Shown in pieces: positions 6,946-61,210 of a DNA stretch of 64,000 nt (position 1 is its first letter; the number at the start of each line of letters is the position of its first letter). Under the pieces are notes generated by a model. It did not search any database, had not been told where the DNA came from, and was given only the letters and a program-made list of their open reading frames with translations. Source of the stretch: Calothrix sp. PCC 7103 (lineage in GTDB: Bacteria > Cyanobacteriota > Cyanobacteriia > Cyanobacteriales > Nostocaceae); assembly GCF_000331305.1 (NCBI RefSeq), contig NZ_KB217480.1:174864-238863 (forward strand), in the 5' to 3' direction. A program made the translations under genes and the position numbers.

Positions 6946-7201
6946 TTATTATTCTCTCTAAATGTTAATAATTTTGTTTTTTATATAATTGTTTGCTATT
7001 TGATGATATAATCCTTTTTTAATTCCTTATCCGTATAAGTATATTAATTTTTTGTGTAAGCAATAACTTAATACACATTGCTACTGATTGTTTATATCTT
7101 TTTACGCGCGCTTCCATGCGGTATGGGTTATAGGCGCCCAAGAGGATATAACTAAGAACACAATTGCGAGATAATTATTTTGTTAGTTCGTCTGTAGATT
7201 T
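6946..7201. other. Upstream region of the mobilisation genes
   Basis: AT-rich, with no coding frame. It precedes the relaxase operon. I cannot identify an oriT inverted repeat or nick site with confidence here or in 7544-7663. Confidence 0.3.
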
Positions 7202-7543
7202 ATGGCTAAAGGATTTGGTCTCAAGCCCTCTCTTACGCTAGGTTATGCGTTAGTTCTTCTCCCCGAAGCGAATGCTTATGCTGCAAAGCTATCTATTGAT
7301 GACGGTAGCGGAGAAGAATTTATCGGTGTCACTAATATGTTAAAGTCCGCACAGGTTTGGAAAACTCAGAAACAAGCCAAGCAAGCAATAGTTAAGTATG
7401 CGAACTTTATAGAAGAACGATTACAAGGTTCTACAGAGGTGGACATTGCAATTAAAGTTGTTAAGCGTTCGGGCGACGGTAAGCTAAACTCCGAACTTGT
7501 TGAGACGTTGTTTATAACACCCGGTGAGTTGGAGAGTTATTAG
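7202..7543 (+). CDS. Hypothetical protein upstream of the relaxase (113 aa)
   Basis: Soluble alpha/beta protein of 113 aa beginning MAKGFGLKPS. There is no signal peptide or known motif. It ends 121 bp before the relaxase gene and is co-oriented with it, so a role as mobilisation accessory protein is possible but unproven. No Shine-Dalgarno is evident. Confidence 0.55.
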   Translation: MAKGFGLKPSLTLGYALVLLPEANAYAAKLSIDDGSGEEFIGVTNMLKSAQVWKTQKQAKQAIVKYANFIEERLQGSTEVDIAIKVVKRSGDGKLNSELVETLFITPGELESY

Positions 7544-40607: not shown

Positions 40608-41462
40608 ATGAAGAAATCCAAATTCCTCAAGGTTATTCTACTTACTACCTTACCAGCAGCACTTTTTGCTCTATTTAGTGCCTTCCAAAAGCCACTGACA
40701 GCTCAAAGCTCAACAAGTGTTCATTTAACAATGGGGAACCCCAGTAGTGCCAGTAATAGTGGCTCTGCAAGTAATAATTTATTATTAGTTAAATCTCAGT
40801 ACGCAACTTCACATAACTGCTCCAAAGGAATACCCAATTGGGTAAGTTGGCAGTTAAACTCATCATGGTTAGGAAGCGCGCCTCGCCAGGATGATTTTCG
40901 TGCAGATACTACATTACCTACTGGTTGCTATCGAGTCCAAAGTAGTAGTTACACTAGTAGCGGATTTGATAGGGGACACATGGCTCCTTCCGCCGATAGA
41001 ACCAATACAATTGCCAATAATTCTGCTACTTTCTTAATGACAAATATGATTCCCCAGGCGCCTGATAATAATCAGGGGATATGGGCGAATCTGGAAAATT
41101 ATTCTAGAGATTTGGTCAATCAAGGTAAAGAACTTTATATTATTTCGGGTGCTTACGGTATTGGTGGAACAGGGTCAAACGGTTACAAAACCACAATTGA
41201 TAGTAACAGAGTTACTGTTCCAGCAAGAACTTGGAAAGTTATTGTTGTTTTAGACAGACCAGGTTTAGGAGTTAGTGGTGTCACTAACAATACCAGGGTA
41301 ATTGCTGTTGATATACCCAATACCCAAGGTGTAAGAAATAACGATTGGAGAAATTACAGAGTTAGCGTTGATACCATCGAATCAAAAACTGGATACAACT
41401 TCCTTTCTCAAGTTTCTAACTCCACTCAAAGCGTAATTGAGTCTAGAGTTGATAATTTATAG
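40608..41462 (+). CDS. nucA: Exported DNA/RNA non-specific endonuclease (NucA family)
   Basis: 284 aa. Signal peptide (to about residue 33), a Ser/Asn-rich linker, then the beta-beta-alpha-metal nuclease with DRGHMAPSADR (121-131, catalytic His124) and the metal-binding Asn region FLMTNMIPQ. Known NucA from Anabaena degrades single- and double-stranded nucleic acids with Mg or Mn. Its inhibitor-family gene (41658-42059) lies convergently downstream. A hairpin terminator follows. Confidence 0.9.
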   Translation: MKKSKFLKVILLTTLPAALFALFSAFQKPLTAQSSTSVHLTMGNPSSASNSGSASNNLLLVKSQYATSHNCSKGIPNWVSWQLNSSWLGSAPRQDDFRADTTLPTGCYRVQSSSYTSSGFDRGHMAPSADRTNTIANNSATFLMTNMIPQAPDNNQGIWANLENYSRDLVNQGKELYIISGAYGIGGTGSNGYKTTIDSNRVTVPARTWKVIVVLDRPGLGVSGVTNNTRVIAVDIPNTQGVRNNDWRNYRVSVDTIESKTGYNFLSQVSNSTQSVIESRVDNL

Positions 41463-42468: not shown

Positions 42469-43341
42469 TTACTCAATCCCAACAAATTCGGGGTAAAACG
42501 TCCGCATCTGTCGGTCAGTCGGACTACGGAACATAGGCAAATTGTACTTCACACCATTAATTACTGCTTGCTTTGATGCCATTGCTTCTGGCAGGAAGCG
42601 AACTGTTCCAAGAGCTAATAAACCTTCTACGCTTGGGCCAACCCAAAAACCACCAATGGGTTTAGTCAGTTTACGGAACTCTTTAGCCTCATAGTCAAAC
42701 GCACGCCACTCAAATGATAATGTGGCAACCTCTGGCGAAACATCAGACGGCAAGTTTTTCCATGTAATAAACTTAATCAAATCAGACTCAACATCATCAT
42801 CATCTCGACGGAAGCGTTCATCTATATAGTATTTGTACCAAAAATGATAGCCTTGAACTTTCCCTTGCTTTTGCTCACCAACAACGACGTGTTCAAAACC
42901 ACTGAGGTCTTTATTTTTACCTGAATCAAACTGCTCAAACCAAATCCTTTGTAAAATTGCCCACCATTGGTCTTCAGATATATTCTGTCCAGATTGTTTT
43001 GAGACAAAATCTCTAGCTATCTTCATCGGAGCGCTACGATAAATTTCGTCAAGGAACTCTTGCACCTCTGCTTTTTCCTCTGGAAAGTCATTTTCAGATT
43101 TTGTTTGGTCAAGCGTGTAATTGTTGAACAACTTTTCCGCTAGGTCATAGCTATGAAGTTTCTTTTCGGGAATAACTACTTCGTCAATTAGTCGGTGGTC
43201 GGCGCCTGCATTTTTGTCTTCATTGACGACAACGTAACCGTGTGCTTTTATCTCGGACGATATTTCCTCACCCTTTCTAACAGCTTTTAGTCCAGAAAGG
43301 GCTTGATCTGCATCCCAGATTTCTTGATAAATGTCAGCCAT
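42469..43341 (-). CDS. EndoU (XendoU)-family ribonuclease
   Basis: About 290 aa from ATG 43341 (MADIYQEIWDADQ; 43374 also possible). N-terminal helical part with the family's EIWDAD and FNNYTLDQ segments, then DQWWAILQRIWFEQF, DLSGFEHVVVGEQKQGKVQG and YHFWYKYYIDE, containing both catalytic histidines (His162 and His177 counted from 43374). EndoU enzymes cut RNA at uridines; bacterial ones are often toxins. No signal peptide or delivery domain is seen, and no obvious immunity gene adjoins it. A NuiA-type gene lies about 400 bp away. Confidence 0.85.
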   Translation of the reverse strand: MADIYQEIWDADQALSGLKAVRKGEEISSEIKAHGYVVVNEDKNAGADHRLIDEVVIPEKKLHSYDLAEKLFNNYTLDQTKSENDFPEEKAEVQEFLDEIYRSAPMKIARDFVSKQSGQNISEDQWWAILQRIWFEQFDSGKNKDLSGFEHVVVGEQKQGKVQGYHFWYKYYIDERFRRDDDDVESDLIKFITWKNLPSDVSPEVATLSFEWRAFDYEAKEFRKLTKPIGGFWVGPSVEGLLALGTVRFLPEAMASKQAVINGVKYNLPMFRSPTDRQMRTFYPEFVGIE

Positions 43342-43374
43342 AATTGATTTACTCCTGTAAAATTTGTACTGCAA

Positions 43375-50974: not shown

Positions 50975-53122
50975 TTATGGTTTATGAGACAGGTGATAGT
51001 CATAGAGAAGAGCTAAATTTCTCGAACTTTGTATAAAGTCAGGATGACTTTCTCCCAAAATGCGTTTTCTTAAGTATAATACTTGAATTAAAAGGTGTTT
51101 AGCTTCATTATTTTTTCCTTGAGAGTGGTAAAGTAAAGCTAAATTATTTAAGCTGGTGGCAAAGTCAGGATGATTTTCTCCTAATATGCGTCTTTTTAAT
51201 TCCAATGCTTTATTTAGAAGCTGTTCAGCTTCACTATATCGTTTTTGATAATTATAAAGATTAGCTAAGTTATTCAAGCTTTGTGCAAAGTCGGGGTGTT
51301 CTTCTCCTAAAATGCGTTTTCTTAATTTTAGTGTTTGATTATACTTGTCCTCGGCTTCTTTATATCTTTTTTGAGAGTAATAAAGAGCAGCTAAATTATT
51401 TAAAATTTGTGCAAAGTCAGGATGATTTTCTCCTAGTATGTTTCTTCTTAACTCCAATGCTTGGGTATACTTAGATTCAGCTTCATCGTACTTATTTTGC
51501 GAATGGTAAAGATTAGCTAAGTTATTTAAGCTAGTAGCAAAGTCGGGATGATTTTCTCCTAGGATACGCTTGATTAGCTTTAAAGCTTTAATATACATAA
51601 ATTCTGCTTCATTGTACCTTCCTTGGGAATTATAAAGAGCAGCTACATTATTTAAACTTTGTGCAAAATCGGAGTGTTCTTCTCCTAAAATGCGTTTTCT
51701 TAATTTCAATGCTTGGGTATACTTTAATTCCGCTTCATCATACTTTCCTTGAGAATGGTAAAGATTCGCCAAATTATTCAAGCTTTGTGCAAAATCAGGA
51801 TGATTCTCTCCTAATATACGTTTTCTTAATTGCAATGCTTGTGTATAATTTAATTCAGCTTCATCGTACTTTCCTTGAGAGTAATATAAATTACCTAAAT
51901 CGTTCAAGCTTTGTGCAAAATCAGGATGATTCTCTCCTAATATACGTTTTCTTAATTGCAATGCTTGTGTATAATTTAATTCAGCTTCATCGTACTTTCC
52001 TAGAGAGTAGTATAAATTAGCTAAATCATTTAGGCTTTGTGCAAAATCAGGATGGTTTTCTCCTAAAATTTGTTTTCTTAGCTCTAATATTTTTGTATAA
52101 ATAGTTTTTGCTTGTTCGTATTTTGCTTGAGAATAGTAGAAATTTGCTAAATCGTTAATTTCACCGTCTTCAAAAATTGCACATTGTTCGATTAGCTCTA
52201 GTTTCAAGGACTCTGAAATTCCTTCATTATTCCCAAATTGGGTATTTATGAAGTTAGTACCTCTTAAATTAGTATTACTGAGGTTAGCATTTCTGAGGTC
52301 AGCACCAGTCAAGTTGGCTCCATTTAAATCAGCACCAGTTAAGTCGGCTCCGCTTAAATCGGCATCACTTAAATCAGCTTTACTTAAATCAGCTTTACTC
52401 AAGTTGGCGCCACTTAAATCAGCGTCACTTAAATCTTCGCATTTTAAATTTCTACCTATAAATTGATTATTTTTAATTTGTTCTATTAAGCGCCATTTAT
52501 CATCATCGTTTAATATTTGGATATTTTCAATAAAAAAATTATTAAGTTCTGTGATATTGCCTAATTGAATCTCAAATGTAAGCTTGTGAATATCTTTTTC
52601 TGAACCCTCTATAAATATTTTAATACTACCTTCTTTAATATCTTTAACTATTATTGTATCTCCTGAAGACTCTCTTAAAAAAGTTTCTATAAATAATTTA
52701 AAATCCTTATCAACCGATTTTATATCGCCTTTCAACACAATACAAGCTTTAATTGTTTTATTGTTTTTATCAATGACGGTTATTTCCTTAGCTGTTATCA
52801 CCTGCCCACCCTCAACAGTAAAACTTTTGCTACTAGGTAGTTTGAGTTCTTCTAGCACTGAGACTTCTTCTATTCTCTCTCTGATTTCTTCCCATTCCAA
52901 TGAGAGTGCATTGCATACCCTTTTAAATGAATCAAGTTGAATTGGTTGGCGCCCAAAAAACTTTGTAATCGTACTACGTGATAATAGTTGAGACTCTGCA
53001 AAGTTCGTTTTTGATTCAAACCCTAGCCTTAACAATGCTTTTTCTGCTCTTTGTAGACCTTTTATGGAGGCAGTGTAAGTCATTTTCTTCTTCTTGTTCG
53101 TGGGAAGGCTATGGTCGGTCAT
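50975..53122 (-). CDS. HTH / TRADD-N-like / pentapeptide / TPR protein A
   Basis: 715 aa. Residues about 15-85: HTH-like ([19 protein letters not shown]). About 95-215: an alpha/beta domain with GDIKSVD and [18 protein letters not shown] that matches the bacterial TRADD-N type (assigned by context). About 228-290: pentapeptide repeats ([18 protein letters not shown]). About 310-710: around nine 42-residue kinesin-light-chain-type TPRs ([20 protein letters not shown]). Architecture of a signalling/conflict scaffold. A broken 2TM gene lies divergently upstream, as with paralogues B and C. Confidence 0.82.
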
Positions 53123-53306
53123 AGTTAAAATAGTTATGGTAAGTACTTATTTGCGTAATCACAACTAAAGCATAGAGCAATTATAGGAAAGTCTAAAGTC
53201 ATTTAGAAGACAATTAATCCTCGTCAGTAATACTGAGATTTTATTTGATATTGAAAGAGTAAAGCTTACCTCAATATCTTAAATTAATGAATGATAAGTC
53301 CTATTC

Positions 53307-53450
53307 GTGACTTTCTTTCATACAATTGAACTGAAGATTGCTCAAGAGCGGTTACGGAAAACACGTCATAGTTTTAACTTTGCAATAGTTGCAACTACTG
53401 CCTCTTTCCTAATTAACATCGCGGGTGGAGTCTTATTTGTATCTAATTAA
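53307..53450 (+). pseudogene. Truncated 2TM protein (TRADD-N-associated type)
   Basis: From GTG 53307 the frame reads IELKIAQERLRKTRHSFNFA, then one TM helix, and stops at 53448. It is homologous to the first half of the intact copies at 54629 and 56966 but lacks the second helix and tail. Confidence 0.75.
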
Positions 53451-53488
53451 GATGACTACCAACCAAGTTGTTAGTTTGTTCAAAATTT

Positions 53489-54463
53489 TTATACCAGTAC
53501 TCTGGAGCGGTCACCCAGTGTATCTTCAAAAATGGCGCCTCGTTCGATTAACTCTTGTTTCATAGACTCTGAAATTCCCTCATTATATCCAAATCGGGTG
53601 TTTGTAACTTTGGCACCGATGAGGTAGGTATCGATGAGATTGGCACCTCTGAGGTCGGCATCGATGAGGATGGCACTGCTGAGGTCGGCACTGCTGAGAT
53701 CGGCATCACTTAAGTCGGCACTGCTGAGGTCGGCACTGCTGAGGTCGGCACTGCTGAGGTCGGCACCTTTCAAGTTTTTACCTCTAGCTCCTTCAGCTTT
53801 GATTTTTTTTACTAAACGCCATTTATTTTCACTTTCAGTATCATCAAAACATTCGTTTAATATTGTGATACTTTCAACAGGAAAACTGTTAATTTCTGTG
53901 ATTTCTCCTAACTCAATGCAAGATGCAAGCTTTTGAATATCTTCTTGAGAGCCTTCTATAAATATTTTAATACTGCCTTCTTGAATATCAGTAACCACTA
54001 TGGTATCTGCTGAATATGTTCTTAAAATTGTTTCAAAAATCAATTTAAAATTATTATCAACCGAACTAATATCGCCTTTCAATTCAACACAAGCTTTAAT
54101 TTTCTTATCGTGTTTATCAATTACTGTCACTCGCTTTGATGCTATTACTTGCCCTACCTCTAACTCAGTTGGGGTACTACATTGTTCTTGTCCTACAGGC
54201 GCCGATACTTCCTCTATTATCTCTCTGATGTCTTCCCATTTCAACTTTAGAGCATCACATATCCTTTTAAATGAATCAAGCTGAATTGCTTGGCGCCCAA
54301 AAAACTTTGTAACTGTAGTGCGAGATAATAGTTGAGATTCTACAAAGTTAGCCTTTGACCCAAACCCTAACCTACAGAGTGCTTTTTCTGCTTTCTCTAC
54401 ACCTTCAATTGAAGCAATGTAGGTTATTTTTTTCTTTTTTGTCGCAAGGCTAAGGTCAGTCAT
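53489..54463 (-). CDS. HTH / TRADD-N-like / pentapeptide protein B (no TPR)
   Basis: 324 aa from ATG 54463 (MTDLSLATKKKK; the start shared by all three paralogues). HTH part with QLLSRTTVTKFFGRQAIQ, TRADD-N-like part with GDISSVDNNFKLIFE and [18 protein letters not shown], and a pure pentapeptide run [19 protein letters not shown]. It ends after IERGAIFEDT, where A and C continue into TPRs, so it is a shortened member. Divergent from the intact 2TM gene at 54629. Confidence 0.8.
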   Translation of the reverse strand: MTDLSLATKKKKITYIASIEGVEKAEKALCRLGFGSKANFVESQLLSRTTVTKFFGRQAIQLDSFKRICDALKLKWEDIREIIEEVSAPVGQEQCSTPTELEVGQVIASKRVTVIDKHDKKIKACVELKGDISSVDNNFKLIFETILRTYSADTIVVTDIQEGSIKIFIEGSQEDIQKLASCIELGEITEINSFPVESITILNECFDDTESENKWRLVKKIKAEGARGKNLKGADLSSADLSSADLSSADLSDADLSSADLSSAILIDADLRGANLIDTYLIGAKVTNTRFGYNEGISESMKQELIERGAIFEDTLGDRSRVLV

Positions 54464-54628
54464 AATTAGGATAGTTTCTGTAAAAACTAATTTGCTCACT
54501 CACAACGCGCGCATAAAGCAATCATAGAAAATCCACAAGTAATTTACAACACAATCACAGCGTAGTCAGTATTACAGGGGTTTGGGTCGATATTGAAAGA
54601 GTAAAGCTTATCTCAGTACATCAAACCT

Positions 54629-54877
54629 ATGAAATTTGAACTAAAAATTGCTCAAGAACGGCTACGTCAAGCACGTTACAGTTTTAACCTCGCTGTAGCT
54701 GCAACTACTGTCTCCTTTTTAATTAGCATCCTAGGCGGGGGATTACTTCTATCTAATAAAGCCTCCGAAGGAAGCATCGCGACAGCTGCGGGTTTGTTTT
54801 CGAGTGTTGGTTTCGTTAAGTTAGCCAAAGATGCAAATGACAGACTCGACAAACTTATGTCTGAACTGGATGACTAA
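54629..54877 (+). CDS. Two-TM membrane protein (cyanobacterial TRADD-N-associated type), copy 1
   Basis: 82 aa: amphipathic helix (KFELKIAQERLRQARYSF), TM1 (LAVAATTVSFLISILGGGLLL), short loop, a second Ala/Gly-rich helix (IATAAGLFSSVGFVKLA) and an acidic tail. Divergent from protein B with a 165-bp shared promoter region. The copy at 56966 differs by one residue. In known conflict systems such 2TM partners are thought to act at the membrane with the TRADD-N protein. Confidence 0.8.
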   Translation: MKFELKIAQERLRQARYSFNLAVAATTVSFLISILGGGLLLSNKASEGSIATAAGLFSSVGFVKLAKDANDRLDKLMSELDD

Positions 54878-54887
54878 TTTAATTACC

Positions 54888-54916
54888 GAACCAGTGGGTA
54901 AATTGTTCACTGGTTC
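54888..54916. terminator. Terminator after 2TM copy 1
   Basis: GAACCAGTG/CACTGGTTC 9-bp stem, 11 bp after the stop, followed by T-rich sequence. Confidence 0.7.
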
Positions 54917-55048
54917 TAATGTTCTATTTTTAGGTGCTTATCTCTCCAGAACAACAAATTGAAGAAGGCATTTTAATCAGAACTAGTTCATATGTTTTGA
55001 TATTTAATATTTATTGAATTGTGGTGTTAATACTTACATCGGTAATTT

Positions 55049-56800
55049 TTAAATAACTTTTTTCGCTTTGTTCCAAACATGATTTTGTAAATGGTGCAGA
55101 TTTTGGCGGTATAAAATTGTGTCTGGGTGATTTGCCCCTAATCTAAGTTCAGCAATTTTTAATGCTTGTTTATACAGAACTTCTGCTTCATTATAATCTT
55201 CTTGAGAGCAGTGTAAAGCAGCTAAATTGTTCAAACTTTGTGCAAAATCAGGATGATTTTCTCCAAAGATACGTTTTCTTAATTCTAAAGCTTGTATATA
55301 AAGAGATTTTGCTTTATCAAACTTTTTAAGTGAGCAATATAAAGCAGCTAAATTATTTAAGCTTTGTGCAAAATCGGGATGTTCTTCTCCCAAGACATGT
55401 TTTCTTATTTTCAACGCTCGGATACAAAGAGGTTCAGCTTTTTCATATCTTTCTTGGGAGTAGTAAAGTACAGCTAAATTGTTCAAGCTTTGTGCAAAAC
55501 CGAGATGATTTTCTCCCAATATCCTTTTTCTTAATTCCAAAACTTGTTTGTAAAGATGTTCTGCTTCATCATATCTTCCTTGGGAATGGTAGAGATTAGC
55601 TAAATCATCCAAGTTTTGTGCAAAGTCGGGATGATTGTCTCCTAATTTTTTTCTTCTTAATTCCAAAGCTTGTATGTAGAGAGGTTCTGCTTCATTATAT
55701 CTTCCTTGAGAACGATAGAGATTAGCTAAATCGCTTAAGTTTTGTGCAAAGTTGGGATGACTTTCTCCTAATGTTTCTCTTTGTAGTTCCAAAATTTGTT
55801 TGTAAAAGGGTTCTGCTTCATCATATTTTCCCTGGAAATAGTGTAAATTAGCTAAATATTTAATCTGGGTATCTTCAAGAATTGCACCTCTTTGGATTAA
55901 CTCTAATTTCATAAACTCCGAAATTCCTTCATTATTCCCAAATCGCGTGTTTATAACATTTGCTTCTCGAAAATTGGCATCACGGAGGTAAGCATTTCTA
56001 AAATCCGCACTAACTAAGTCGGCACCACTAAAATTAGCATTACTTAAGTCGGCACCGCTAAAATCAACACCACTTAAATCAGCATCGCTGAAATCAGCGT
56101 CTTTTAAATTCTTACCTTTAGCTCCTTCAGTTTTAATTTTAGTTATTAAATGCCATTTATGTTCACTATTGGTATTATTGTAGTTTGTCTTTAATGTTTG
56201 AATACTTTCAATAGGAAAACTACTAAGTTCGGTGATTTCACCTGACTCGACAAGAGATATAAGCTTTTGAATATCTTCTTGTGAACCTTCTATAAATAAT
56301 TTGATACTTCCTTTTTTGATATCAGTAATTTTTATTGTATGTCCCGAATATCTTCTTAAAAGCAATTCTATAGATACTGATAAGTCATTGTTAACTGAGT
56401 TTATATCGCCTTCCAATACAATAACTGCTTCACTTTTCCCGTTTTTATCAATTGCAGCGACTTGACGCTTGACTGTCATCACTGACCCATCTTCCAATGT
56501 GCTTAGGGTACTAGATTGCTTCATTTCTTTGTTTAGTGCCGATACTTCTTCTATATCTATAATTTCTTCCCATTTTAAATCTAACGCTTCACATATCCTT
56601 TTAAAAGAATCAAGCTGAATAGCTTGGCGCCCAAAAAACTTTGTAACTGTGCTGCGAGATAATAATTGTGACTCTGCAAAGTTAGCCTTGGACTCAAACC
56701 CTAACCTTACCAACGCTTTTCCTGCTTTTTCCACACCTTTAATGGAAGCAGCATAGGTTAATTTCTTTTTTTTATTTGTTGCAAGGCTAAGGTCAGTCAT
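55049..56800 (-). CDS. HTH / TRADD-N-like / pentapeptide / TPR protein C
   Basis: 583 aa from ATG 56800. Same modules as A: HTH ([20 protein letters not shown]), TRADD-N-like (GDINSVNNDLSVSIELLLR, GSIKLFIEGSQEDIQKLI), about a dozen pentapeptides (DADFSDADLSGVDFSGADLS), then about seven TPRs (AEPLYIQALELRRKKLGDNH). Divergent from 2TM copy 2, with which it shares an intergenic region almost identical to that of pair B. Confidence 0.82.
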   Translation of the reverse strand: MTDLSLATNKKKKLTYAASIKGVEKAGKALVRLGFESKANFAESQLLSRSTVTKFFGRQAIQLDSFKRICEALDLKWEEIIDIEEVSALNKEMKQSSTLSTLEDGSVMTVKRQVAAIDKNGKSEAVIVLEGDINSVNNDLSVSIELLLRRYSGHTIKITDIKKGSIKLFIEGSQEDIQKLISLVESGEITELSSFPIESIQTLKTNYNNTNSEHKWHLITKIKTEGAKGKNLKDADFSDADLSGVDFSGADLSNANFSGADLVSADFRNAYLRDANFREANVINTRFGNNEGISEFMKLELIQRGAILEDTQIKYLANLHYFQGKYDEAEPFYKQILELQRETLGESHPNFAQNLSDLANLYRSQGRYNEAEPLYIQALELRRKKLGDNHPDFAQNLDDLANLYHSQGRYDEAEHLYKQVLELRKRILGENHLGFAQSLNNLAVLYYSQERYEKAEPLCIRALKIRKHVLGEEHPDFAQSLNNLAALYCSLKKFDKAKSLYIQALELRKRIFGENHPDFAQSLNNLAALHCSQEDYNEAEVLYKQALKIAELRLGANHPDTILYRQNLHHLQNHVWNKAKKVI

Positions 56801-56965
56801 AGTTAAGATAACTTCTGTAAGAACTAATTTGCTCACTCACAACGCGCGCATAAAGCAATCATAGAAAATCCACAAGTAATTTACAACACAATCACAGCGT
56901 AGTCAATATTACAGGGGTTTGGGTCGATATTGAAAGAGTAAAGTTTCTCTCAGTACCTCAAACCT

Positions 56966-57214
56966 ATGAAATTTGAACTAAAAATTGCTCAAGAACGGCT
57001 ACGTCAAGCACGTTACAGTTTTAACCTTGCTGTAGCTGCAACTACTGTCTCTTTTTTAATTAGTATCCTGGGTGGCGCCTTACTTCTGTCTAATAAAGCC
57101 TCCGAAGGTAGCATCGCGACAGCTGCGGGTTTGTTTTCGAGTGTTGGTTTCGTTAAGTTAGCCAAAGATGCCAATGATAGACTCGACAAACTTATGTCCG
57201 AACTGGATGACTAA
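56966..57214 (+). CDS. Two-TM membrane protein, copy 2
   Basis: 82 aa, one substitution (GGA for GGG in ILGGxLL) from copy 1. The difference coincides with a GGCGCC at 57073-57078 that is absent from copy 1. The upstream 130 bp and downstream hairpin are also duplicated. Partner of protein C. Confidence 0.8.
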   Translation: MKFELKIAQERLRQARYSFNLAVAATTVSFLISILGGALLLSNKASEGSIATAAGLFSSVGFVKLAKDANDRLDKLMSELDD

Positions 57215-59384: not shown

Positions 59385-59541
59385 ACCCCCAGCATTTCTT
59401 ATTATAGCTACGTGGTCAAGGGCTACGCAGGTAGTGAATTATATAGTTGCTATGCAGTTCACATCTGGGGGATGCCCCCAGCTCACAAGGGTAGGTTTTT
59501 TACAATATAATAGTGAGAGGCAAGGTAGACCAGGAAGGAAA

Positions 59542-59940
59542 GTGGACAAGGAAGAAAAAAAAATAAAAACTCATGAGGATTTAGTCATCTATCAAAAAGC
59601 ATTTGATGCAGCGATGACGATTTTTGAGCTATCAAAAAATTTTCCACCAGAAGAGAAATATTCGCGCTCCAGATCAAATTCGTCGTTCAGGAGCGTTCAG
59701 TTTGTGCAAATTTTGCGCTTATCTTGGAGAAAAAGGAGATATACTGCATCTTTTATTGCCAAATTAAATGACTGTGAATCAGAAGCTGCAGAAACCCAAG
59801 TATGGCTAAAATTTGCAGTGAAATGTCAATACATTTCTACATTGCAAGGTCGAGATTTATATAGTACATACAATCAAGTTTTAAGTGGATTAGTAAAAAT
59901 GATTAATCATCCAGAAAATTGGATAATTAGTAATAATTAA
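59542..59940 (+). CDS. Four-helix-bundle (23S rRNA IVP-like) protein, internally scrambled
   Basis: 133 aa from GTG 59542 behind AGGAAGG. THEDLVIYQKAFDAAMTIFE and RRYTASFIAKLNDCESEAAE, then TQVWLKFAVKCQYI, are characteristic of the TIGR02436/PF05635 four-helix family. Between EEKYS and WRKRRY the expected DQIRRS segment is encoded one frame away (about 59671-59690), so two compensating indels changed some 20 residues. Function of the family is unknown; members form pentamers and some bind nucleic acid. Only 31 bp before the transposase gene. Confidence 0.78.
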   Translation: MDKEEKKIKTHEDLVIYQKAFDAAMTIFELSKNFPPEEKYSRSRSNSSFRSVQFVQILRLSWRKRRYTASFIAKLNDCESEAAETQVWLKFAVKCQYISTLQGRDLYSTYNQVLSGLVKMINHPENWIISNN

Positions 59941-59971
59941 GTATGATTATAAACAACAAAAAGGTGTAATT

Positions 59972-61210
59972 ATGTTGAGAAGTGGACATCTCAAACAATG
60001 GACAAGGATTGTAAGTTATCACATGCCTCATCTATCTTTACCAGAAGTAACAGGTTTGGCAACTTGGAGTTTTGGGATGGTAATGACGGGTTCAAGTAGT
60101 GTTACAAAAATATCGGAATTTATCAGTAGGCTAAATCAAGAAAAAAGTAATACAGTTAGGCAGAGGCTCAAAGAATGGTATCAAAATGCTGATAGCAAAA
60201 AAGGTAAAAAACGAAGTGAATTAGATGTAACTAAATGCTTTGTACCTTTACTAAAATGGATTTTGAGTATGTGGAAAAGTGAAGAAAAACAGCTAACACT
60301 TGCGATGGATGCCACTAATATTAGACAGAATTTTACGGTTCTATCTCTTCATGTTCTTTATCAAGGTTGTGGTATTCCCGTGGCTTGGAAAATTGTTAAA
60401 GGAACTGAGAAAGGCTCTTGGAAGCCTCATTGGCGCAATCTCTTTCAATCACTATTTGATGCAATCCCTTCTGACTGGCGTGTAATTGTCTTGGCAGATA
60501 GAGGACTTTATGCTGATTGGCTGTTCAATGACATTTGTGCTTTGAATTGGCACCCTTTTTTAAGAATTAACCAACAAGGAACATTTCAAATTAAAGGAGA
60601 GAAAGAATGGCGTTTTCTTGATACAGTAGTGCCTCAAAAAGATATGAGTTGGTCGGGAATTGTTACCTGCTTTAAAACTAATCCTCTAGATTGTACTTTA
60701 TTAGCACGTTGGGAATCAAATTATAAAGAACCTTGGTTGATTATCACCGACTTAAAACCTGAACAAGCAGATATTCTCTGGTACGGTTTACGTATCGGCA
60801 TTGAATCGAGCTATAGAGATATTAAGAGTGATGGGTGGCAATGGCATAAAACTCGTTTAACAGACCCAAAACGGGCTGAAAGATTATGGTTAGCAATCGC
60901 TGTTGCAACATTGTGGACAGTAACAGTTGGTGGTTCACCAGTTGGCGTCGGCTTTGACCCTACCAAACTGGTGAACCCGGAGGGTGATATAAATCAACAA
61001 CCTCCTGAAAATTCAACTTCACAACTTCCTGCTAATCATGTAGAAAAAAAAGCAACTACAGCTAAAAAAACTAGCCGCCATATTTCTTGTTTTCTGCAAG
61101 GACTACTAACAATTATTGCTGATTTACTTAACGGGAAAGCCATTTCTTTAAATGGCTTATTTCCAGAACCACGAGTACTCTTGAATCCAGCAACTGTTAA
61201 CAGTTCTTAG
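59972..61210 (+). CDS. IS4-superfamily DDE transposase
   Basis: 412 aa. DDE triad: Asp113 (LAMDATN), Asp176 (VLADRGLY) and Glu278 (GIESSYRDIKSDGWQWHKTRL, with the basic YR...K pattern typical of the superfamily). N-terminal helical DNA-binding part, C-terminal basic tail (EKKATTAKKTSRH). AAGGTG precedes ATG 59972. Full length with intact ends, so probably active. Confidence 0.9.
   Translation: MLRSGHLKQWTRIVSYHMPHLSLPEVTGLATWSFGMVMTGSSSVTKISEFISRLNQEKSNTVRQRLKEWYQNADSKKGKKRSELDVTKCFVPLLKWILSMWKSEEKQLTLAMDATNIRQNFTVLSLHVLYQGCGIPVAWKIVKGTEKGSWKPHWRNLFQSLFDAIPSDWRVIVLADRGLYADWLFNDICALNWHPFLRINQQGTFQIKGEKEWRFLDTVVPQKDMSWSGIVTCFKTNPLDCTLLARWESNYKEPWLIITDLKPEQADILWYGLRIGIESSYRDIKSDGWQWHKTRLTDPKRAERLWLAIAVATLWTVTVGGSPVGVGFDPTKLVNPEGDINQQPPENSTSQLPANHVEKKATTAKKTSRHISCFLQGLLTIIADLLNGKAISLNGLFPEPRVLLNPATVNSS

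What the first reader, a model, noticed from the sequence alone, without database searches (positions are those of the whole stretch)
50975..57214. Triplicated HTH / TRADD-N-like / pentapeptide / TPR proteins, each with a divergent two-TM partner
Three paralogues in a row with variable effector/scaffold length (TPR present, absent, present) and a nearly invariant small membrane protein on the opposite strand. It fits the TRADD-N and associated 2TM proteins described in cyanobacterial conflict systems. However, the combination of an N-terminal HTH with a pentapeptide helix and KLC-type TPRs, and no enzymatic effector, is unusual. It may be a sensor/scaffold array for defence or cell death.
Basis: partly seen in the sequence, partly recalled or inferred. 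Interest (0 to 1): 0.75.

Follow-up and report, generated by a model that had tools for sequence, protein, structure and literature searches.

The report
Self-regulated TRADD-N genes with membrane partner
A cyanobacterium (judged by its relatives) carries three neighbouring genes of a suspected immune or cell-death family, each starting with a DNA-binding domain and, in two cases, placed back-to-back with a tiny membrane protein; in other cyanobacteria the same tiny protein is paired in the same way with NLR-like proteins, and a ladder of repeated DNA sites at the shared start suggests that these proteins control their own genes.

Summary
Three minus-strand paralogues (A 50975-53122, B 53489-54463, C 55049-56800) each carry an Xre-like HTH, a TRADD-N domain (PF20694, above cut-off in all three) and pentapeptide repeats; A and C add TPRs. 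Two divergent 2TM genes are intact (54629-54877, 56966-57214; PF20712), but A's partner is a remnant that stops after the first helix (53298-53450). B looks like the family's normal form; the TPRs of A and C are the oddity. Family and partner are already in Pfam, and HTH, TPR and pentapeptide fusions to bacterial TRADD-N are in print.

Two results go beyond that. First, the 2TM protein is not TRADD-N-specific: of 49 divergent HTH partners in other genomes, 15 carry TRADD-N and 27 a P-loop NTPase motif (many NACHT). Second, 29 aligned HTH-TRADD-N promoters share about six tandem 11-bp units overlapping a promoter-like sequence; NACHT and AAA classes have their own 11-bp-spaced repeats. I read this as a self-regulated sensor plus membrane-effector module. 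Regulation is inferred from sequence; the effector role is a guess.

The parts
50975..53122 (-). Gene A, 715 aa: HTH, TRADD-N, pentapeptide repeats, TPR array
   Evidence: ORF; Pfam (PF20694 residues 144-203, 41.0 bits; nine PF13374 TPR stretches); HTH by alignment to C
52514..52693 (-). TRADD-N match of A (residues 144-203)
53298..53450 (+). Remnant of A's 2TM partner: first helix only, then stop; no ATG, a GTG at 53307 could start it
   Evidence: frame; PF20712 positions 1-35/68 with TAA inside; sequence
53153..53218 (-). Degenerate 11-bp repeat array upstream of A
   Evidence: pattern at 53156-53185 with 3 mismatches
53489..54463 (-). Gene B, 324 aa from ATG: HTH, TRADD-N, pentapeptide repeats, family tail; no TPR
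   Evidence: listed as P0133
53864..54049 (-). TRADD-N match of B (residues 139-200 counted from the ATG)
   Evidence: 43.2 bits
54494..54559 (-). Six tandem, imperfect 11-bp units upstream of B (putative operator)
   Evidence: core pattern 54497-54526 with 0 mismatches
54521..54549 (-). Sigma-70-like match TTGTAA-17-TATGAT inside the B array (consensus match only)
   Evidence: 17 matches in the region against 12.5 expected, so weak by itself
54629..54877 (+). 2TM partner of B, 82 aa (PF20712)
55049..56800 (-). Gene C, 583 aa from ATG: HTH, TRADD-N, pentapeptide repeats, TPR array
   Evidence: P0121
56192..56437 (-). RRM-like TRADD-N fold of C (residues 122-203)
   Evidence: model m260da5aa8922; PF20694 48.1 bits
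56555..56758 (-). HTH of C (about residues 15-82)
56831..56896 (-). Six tandem, imperfect 11-bp units upstream of C (putative operator)
   Evidence: core pattern 56834-56863 with 0 mismatches
56858..56886 (-). Sigma-70-like match TTGTAA-17-TATGAT inside the C array (consensus match only)
56966..57214 (+). 2TM partner of C, 82 aa (PF20712)

Best explanation
Each intact unit is a two-gene, self-regulated conflict module. The large protein is the sensor and switch. Its N-terminal Xre-like HTH binds a tandem ladder of 11-bp sites overlapping its own core promoter, in the divergent gap shared with the 2TM gene, and keeps the pair at a low level (inferred from sequence). Its pentapeptide or TPR repeats are the variable recognition surface, and TRADD-N is the switch between them and the HTH (inferred, following Kaur et al. 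2021). The 2TM protein, modelled as two long helices, is the membrane-acting partner set off or freed when the sensor fires, most likely by damaging or depolarising the membrane (guess). In other cyanobacteria the same unit uses NACHT or other STAND/AAA NTPases in place of TRADD-N behind an HTH, so the constant core is the 2TM protein, the divergent promoter and the HTH. In this window unit A has lost a whole 2TM gene, B is the standard form, and A and C have a rare TPR extension.
For: TRADD-N above cut-off in all three, with the invariant Ser of the beta2-beta3 turn (Ser165 of C). 2TM linkage: 24 of 32 loci found by HTH-TRADD-N alone; own genome 5 of 5 counting the remnant. Arrangement: with an HTH profile built without using the 2TM neighbour, 36 of 2611 ORFs in 86 2TM loci match at E<=1e-4; 32 lie divergent within 700 bp, 4 divergent but further, 0 elsewhere. 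Partner swapping: of 62 divergent proteins scanned at E<=0.001, 22 match NACHT (some below the curated cut-off) and 14 TRADD-N; 10 partner changes on the 2TM tree, with starred branches forcing at least 3 for TRADD-N and 3 for NACHT. Operator: in 29 anchored HTH-TRADD-N promoters the six best of 100 offsets are all multiples of 11 (0 and +11 lie partly in the anchor, the other four do not); period 11 is also best in 13 promoters under 70% alike, counting only offsets outside the anchor. Mean Z at period 11 is 2.22, 2.63 and 3.36 in three HTH classes against 0.11 in 120 control regions. Own genome: of 5 pattern hits with at most 2 mismatches, 4 are HTH-TRADD-N promoters. The array also precedes HTH-TRADD-N genes without a 2TM gene, so it goes with the HTH.
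Against: No expression, binding, toxicity or phage data. The arrays lie at the HTH gene's promoter; control of the 2TM gene is not shown. 8 of 32 loci have no 2TM gene, and 40 of 86 2TM loci have no near-divergent HTH by these profiles, so neither protein strictly needs the other. With the A2-based HTH profile alone the partners split about evenly (of 33: 15 TRADD-N, 13 P-loop, 5 other); the NTPase majority rests on including the more distant h2 class. Two TRADD-N partners (L103, L113) have another HTH class and lack the TATGATTG motif. The h2 class shows no 11-bp signal (mean Z -0.1). Many loci are related, so counts are not independent. The 2TM model has no clear fold match, and the TRADD-N part of the model has only moderate confidence (block means 60-78).
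Confidence: 0.45

Rival explanations
1. Toxin-antitoxin-like pair: the 2TM protein is a standing membrane toxin and the HTH-TRADD-N protein is its antitoxin and autorepressor.
For: Divergent small membrane gene plus HTH gene; unit A kept the HTH gene while its 2TM gene decayed, as expected if the toxin goes first; the HTH fold resembles HipB among many HTH proteins.
Against: Many 2TM genes have no near-divergent HTH partner by these profiles (40 of 86 loci; a few of these have another kind of N-terminal domain by eye), which a potent standing toxin should not allow; the large variable proteins and STAND NTPases are far more than an antitoxin needs.
Confidence: 0.2
2. The 2TM protein is a membrane tether or receptor for the HTH protein, and the output is transcriptional: on release from the membrane the HTH protein changes gene expression.
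For: Kaur et al. 2021 suggest a transcriptional output for HTH-TRADD-N proteins. The 2TM proteins of the h2-STAND class form their own clade and by eye have a different C-terminus, which could be an interface.
Against: The operator pattern is nearly confined to the proteins' own promoters in this genome at up to 2 mismatches, so no wide regulon is visible.
Confidence: 0.2
3. Not a defence module: a regulatory or developmental family (cyanobacterial pentapeptide proteins such as HetL act in heterocyst control; recalled) that has expanded by duplication.
For: Weak sub-threshold similarity of the pentapeptide part to the HetL model; no hit of B or the 2TM protein in PADLOC.
Against: Patchy distribution (PF20694 in 13 of 145 genomes of the class), decayed 2TM genes, repeated swapping with NACHT and STAND domains; HetL-model scores are far below the cut-off (45.1 against 260 for B).
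Confidence: 0.12

Closest known systems
Bacterial TRADD-N proteins of Kaur, Iyer, Burroughs and Aravind, eLife 2021 (PMC8195603; abstract, sections 9 and 12 and passages seen)
   Same: TRADD-N between an N-terminal effector, EAD or HTH and C-terminal pentapeptide, TPR or HEAT repeats; over-represented in multicellular bacteria including cyanobacteria (section 9).
   Different: Their N-terminal HTH is called ECF-like, here it is Xre/Cro-like. Term searches of the main text found no 2TM or CyanoTRADD wording; figures and source data not seen.
Pfam PF20712 CyanoTRADDas_TM (NCBI name: TRADD-N-associated membrane domain-containing protein, seen)
   Same: The 2TM partner is a plain member.
   Different: The name implies TRADD-N; in the loci examined here 15 of 49 divergent HTH partners carry TRADD-N and 27 a P-loop motif (Pfam).
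Bacterial NACHT (NLR-related) antiphage proteins, e.g. bNACHT25 (PMC12169576; start of abstract in a listing, plus a term search)
   Same: NACHT as central switch; one partner scanned singly here is HTH-NACHT-NCH2 (L060), and NCH2 is found in 9 of 62.
   Different: The term search found no HTH or transmembrane wording in that paper; the window's genes show no NTPase.
BldC head-to-tail binding to direct repeats (Nat Commun 2018, PMC5859096; passages seen)
   Same: HTH protomers on tandem direct repeats of variable number.
   Different: MerR-like fold and 9-bp repeats; here Xre-like HTH and 11-bp spacing; binding not shown.
SLATT 2TM effectors (passages in PMC7159879)
   Same: Small 2TM proteins next to conflict genes, predicted to form pores.
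   Different: PF20712 is the only Pfam match at E<=1; homology to SLATT not shown.

Membership tests
Bacterial TRADD-N proteins (PF20694) | Profile match above curated cut-off | tested here: met
   41.0, 43.2 and 48.1 bits against 23.7
Bacterial TRADD-N proteins (PF20694) | RRM-like beta-alpha-beta-beta-alpha-beta fold | tested here: met
Bacterial TRADD-N proteins (PF20694) | Conserved Ser in the turn between beta2 and beta3 | tested here: met
   Ser165 of C invariant in 14 and in 32 aligned sequences, between the strands 157-162 and 166-173
Bacterial TRADD-N proteins (PF20694) | TRADD-N lies between other domains | tested here: met
   HTH before, pentapeptide repeats after, in A, B and C
PF20712 CyanoTRADDas_TM | Profile match above curated cut-off, two TM segments | tested here: met
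   74.0 and 73.3 bits against 24.3; two long helices 2-41 and 45-81; second hydrophobic stretch only moderate
PF20712 CyanoTRADDas_TM | Association with TRADD-N (implied by the name) | tested here: met
   Met in this genome and in 24 of 32 loci, but not exclusive: other HTH partners elsewhere
NLR-like NACHT defence proteins | NACHT NTPase domain in the window's proteins | tested here: not met
   No NACHT among the 25 best Pfam families shown for A (of 37) and C (of 38) or the 8 for B; the works-like claim rests on the shared 2TM partner and related HTH only
Direct-repeat HTH regulators (BldC-like mode) | Tandem direct repeats at the target promoter | tested here: met
Direct-repeat HTH regulators (BldC-like mode) | Protein binds the repeats head-to-tail | not testable with these tools
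   Needs EMSA or footprint
SLATT 2TM effectors | Sequence membership of a SLATT family | tested here: inconclusive
   Only PF20712 at E<=1 in Pfam; distant homology not excluded
Toxin-antitoxin pair | 2TM toxic alone and neutralised by partner | not testable with these tools
   Needs expression assay

The most novel reading that the evidence does not exclude
The PF20712 2TM protein is a general membrane effector of cyanobacterial NLR-like immunity, shared by swapping between TRADD-N and NACHT/STAND sensors, and its sensors read their own assembly state on DNA: the HTH heads of an oligomer sit one helical turn apart on an 11-bp ladder at the shared promoter, so that a change of oligomeric state on sensing invaders both opens the promoter and releases the membrane effector.
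Probability: 0.22. Interest if true: 0.85.

Novelty: new variant of a known kind. Interest (0 to 1): 0.6.

Why it matters
TRADD-N links bacterial conflict systems to animal cell-death signalling (PMC8195603 abstract), but the passages I saw rest on sequence analysis, not on experiments with a bacterial TRADD-N system. The module gives cheap tests: a defined operator with a predicted spacing, and one small membrane protein common to TRADD-N and NLR-like NACHT genes. If the 2TM protein is their common effector, one assay covers several sensor families at once, and the present family name is misleading. A DNA ladder coupled to an oligomerising immune sensor would be, as far as I know, a new control principle.

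Tried and rejected
Rejected: my first idea that B lost its TPRs and A's 2TM end in one deletion. B ends in the usual family tail (by eye; the strict pattern missed B), so TPRs were more likely added to A and C. Rejected: TRADD-N specificity of the 2TM protein. Rejected: one shared motif across all HTH classes; at up to 3 mismatches of 15 fixed letters the TATGATTG motif is found only in TRADD-N promoters among those scanned, and three TRADD-N promoters (L103, L113, L151) miss it (shuffles reach 3 to 5).

Led nowhere: Foldseek for the 2TM model (best E 0.49, helical pore-formers and TolQ) and for the HTH-TRADD-N model (no E<=0.001); PADLOC for B and the 2TM protein (no hit); NCBIfam for the same (no hit near a cut-off); Rfam (none at gathering score). 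VIA-align did not list a TRADD or STAND chain among its 50 rows, which excludes nothing. Papers: CyanoTRADDas gave 0; TRADD-N with NACHT and 'two transmembrane' gave 0.
Full report

The partners. Two + strand genes, 54629-54877 and 56966-57214, are PF20712; their products differ at one of 82 residues. A's partner is a remnant: the open frame 53298-53450 matches only positions 1-35 of the profile and then stops. So the claim of three partners holds for two. The model of the 2TM protein is two long helices, 2-41 and 45-81 (pLDDT 79), without a clear fold match.

The family. With C as query 1921 proteins match at E<=0.001 among the 8000 candidates scored, and with A 7638 of 8000; the listed 120 carry PF20694 and pentapeptide models, while unlisted ones may match through pentapeptides alone. 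None of the other 119 listed proteins in either search has a TPR model; C is the only one with TPRs in both lists, and A itself is in neither list. A conserved tail (GISE..K.DLI.RGAIFED) ends most members: a strict pattern found it in 96 of 120, and several of the 24 it missed, B among them, show it by eye. A and C carry TPRs directly after it. I therefore take B as the normal form.

Comparison of B and C. Their DNA is 95% identical over the 2TM gene and over the gap, 84% over the HTH, and 69-70% over the linker, TRADD-N and pentapeptide part. In the 2TM gene 12 of 83 codons differ, 11 of them silently; in the long genes 179 of 314 aligned codons differ, 111 changing the residue. The constant half is either recently homogenised or much more constrained; the other half is diversified.

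Linkage in other genomes. A scan of genome contigs with HTH-TRADD-N (alignment A2) gave 32 loci; 24 have a PF20712-like gene divergent upstream, up to about 930 bp away, and 8 have none: L033, L035, L042, L045, L046, L047, L054 and L058, the last an HTH gene with a P-loop NTPase of NACHT type by eye. In a class-wide sample, PF20712 occurs in 21 of 145 genomes and PF20694 in 13 of 145, the own genome included, and outside the own genome only one pair of listed places (G040) is adjacent. So the 2TM gene must have other partners.

The other partners. I fetched 2TM places from the class and order searches, giving 87 places in 86 loci. By my four HTH profiles 49 of 87 have a divergent ORF with such an HTH; 15 of the 49 are TRADD-N and 27 have a P-loop motif. 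By the A2-based profile alone the split is 15 TRADD-N, 13 P-loop and 5 other of 33. Pfam on 62 divergent proteins of at least 200 aa, including ones without an HTH match, gives at E<=0.001 AAA_22 in 26, NACHT in 22, AAA_16 in 17, TRADD-like_N in 14, NCH2 in 9, AAA_35 in 5 and iSTAND in 2 (matches overlap and some lie below the curated cut-off). With all four HTH profiles 46 of 86 loci have the HTH divergent within 700 bp, and the 54 HTH matches in 632 kb lie 46 near-divergent, 6 further divergent, 1 same-strand and 1 convergent. Three of those profiles were seeded with divergent proteins, so I repeated it with the A2-based profile alone: 36 of 2611 ORFs match at E<=1e-4, 32 near-divergent, 4 further divergent, none elsewhere. 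On a tree of 53 2TM proteins, partner classes need 10 changes (least possible 5; shuffled mean 29.3); starred branches force at least 3 for TRADD-N and 3 for NACHT; the h2-STAND partners are one side of a starred branch. Few columns were available, so many forks are open. In the own genome, C1 has a 2TM gene divergent to an HTH protein with a weak phycobilisome-family match.

How it most likely works. Shown by sequence: domain make-up, divergent pairing, partner swapping, tandem 11-bp sites at the protein's own promoter. Inferred: the HTH binds them and represses its own gene. An 11-bp spacing puts protomers on one face of the helix, head to tail, a mode known from BldC on 9-bp repeats (PMC5859096, passages). 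Inferred from the literature: TRADD-N acts as a switch between flanking domains (PMC8195603, section 12). Guess: the 2TM protein is the membrane effector.

Known or new. The domain family, the HTH and repeat fusions (PMC8195603, section 9) and the 2TM family (Pfam) are known. I found no account of a 2TM partner shared by TRADD-N and NACHT proteins or of the operator ladder in the full-text searches and 106 of one open library, of which I read listings and the passages named; subscription papers and the source data of PMC8195603 were not seen. I rate the finding as a new variant of a known kind.

Noticed in passing
L026:8083-8820 (own genome C1), 2TM at L026:7437-7802: A 2TM gene divergent to an HTH protein whose C-terminal part weakly matches the phycobilisome family (PF00502, 23.6 bits, cut-off 22.2); a pigment-protein fold as sensor domain would be odd.
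   Followed up: partly
L023:10423-13275 (own genome C10): HTH-TRADD-N protein with a long run of helical-looking repeats (by eye) inserted between two pentapeptide blocks; the variable part sits between TRADD-N and the conserved tail.
   Followed up: no
L024:6737-6904 (-) and 7187-7372 (+), own genome C10: Another shortened 2TM frame, divergent to a short gene that by eye resembles the start of TIR-like proteins, with a partly masked gene nearby.
   Followed up: no
promoters L061, L120, L121, L126, L128, L136, L137, L146: The h2 HTH class of STAND proteins carries inverted GGGCAGATAGG-like repeats instead of 11-bp direct repeats (by eye).
   Followed up: no
L053:5995-10168: Three tandem genes with HTH-TRADD-N profile matches (the third partial) behind one 2TM gene in a Prochloraceae MAG: another local expansion.
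   Followed up: no
window 40608-41462 and 42469-43374: A DNA/RNA non-specific endonuclease (PF01223) and a XendoU endoribonuclease (PF09412) close together, some 8 to 10 kb from the cluster.
   Followed up: no
window 59434-61210: A 23S rRNA intervening-sequence-type protein followed by a DDE transposase near the cluster.
   Followed up: no
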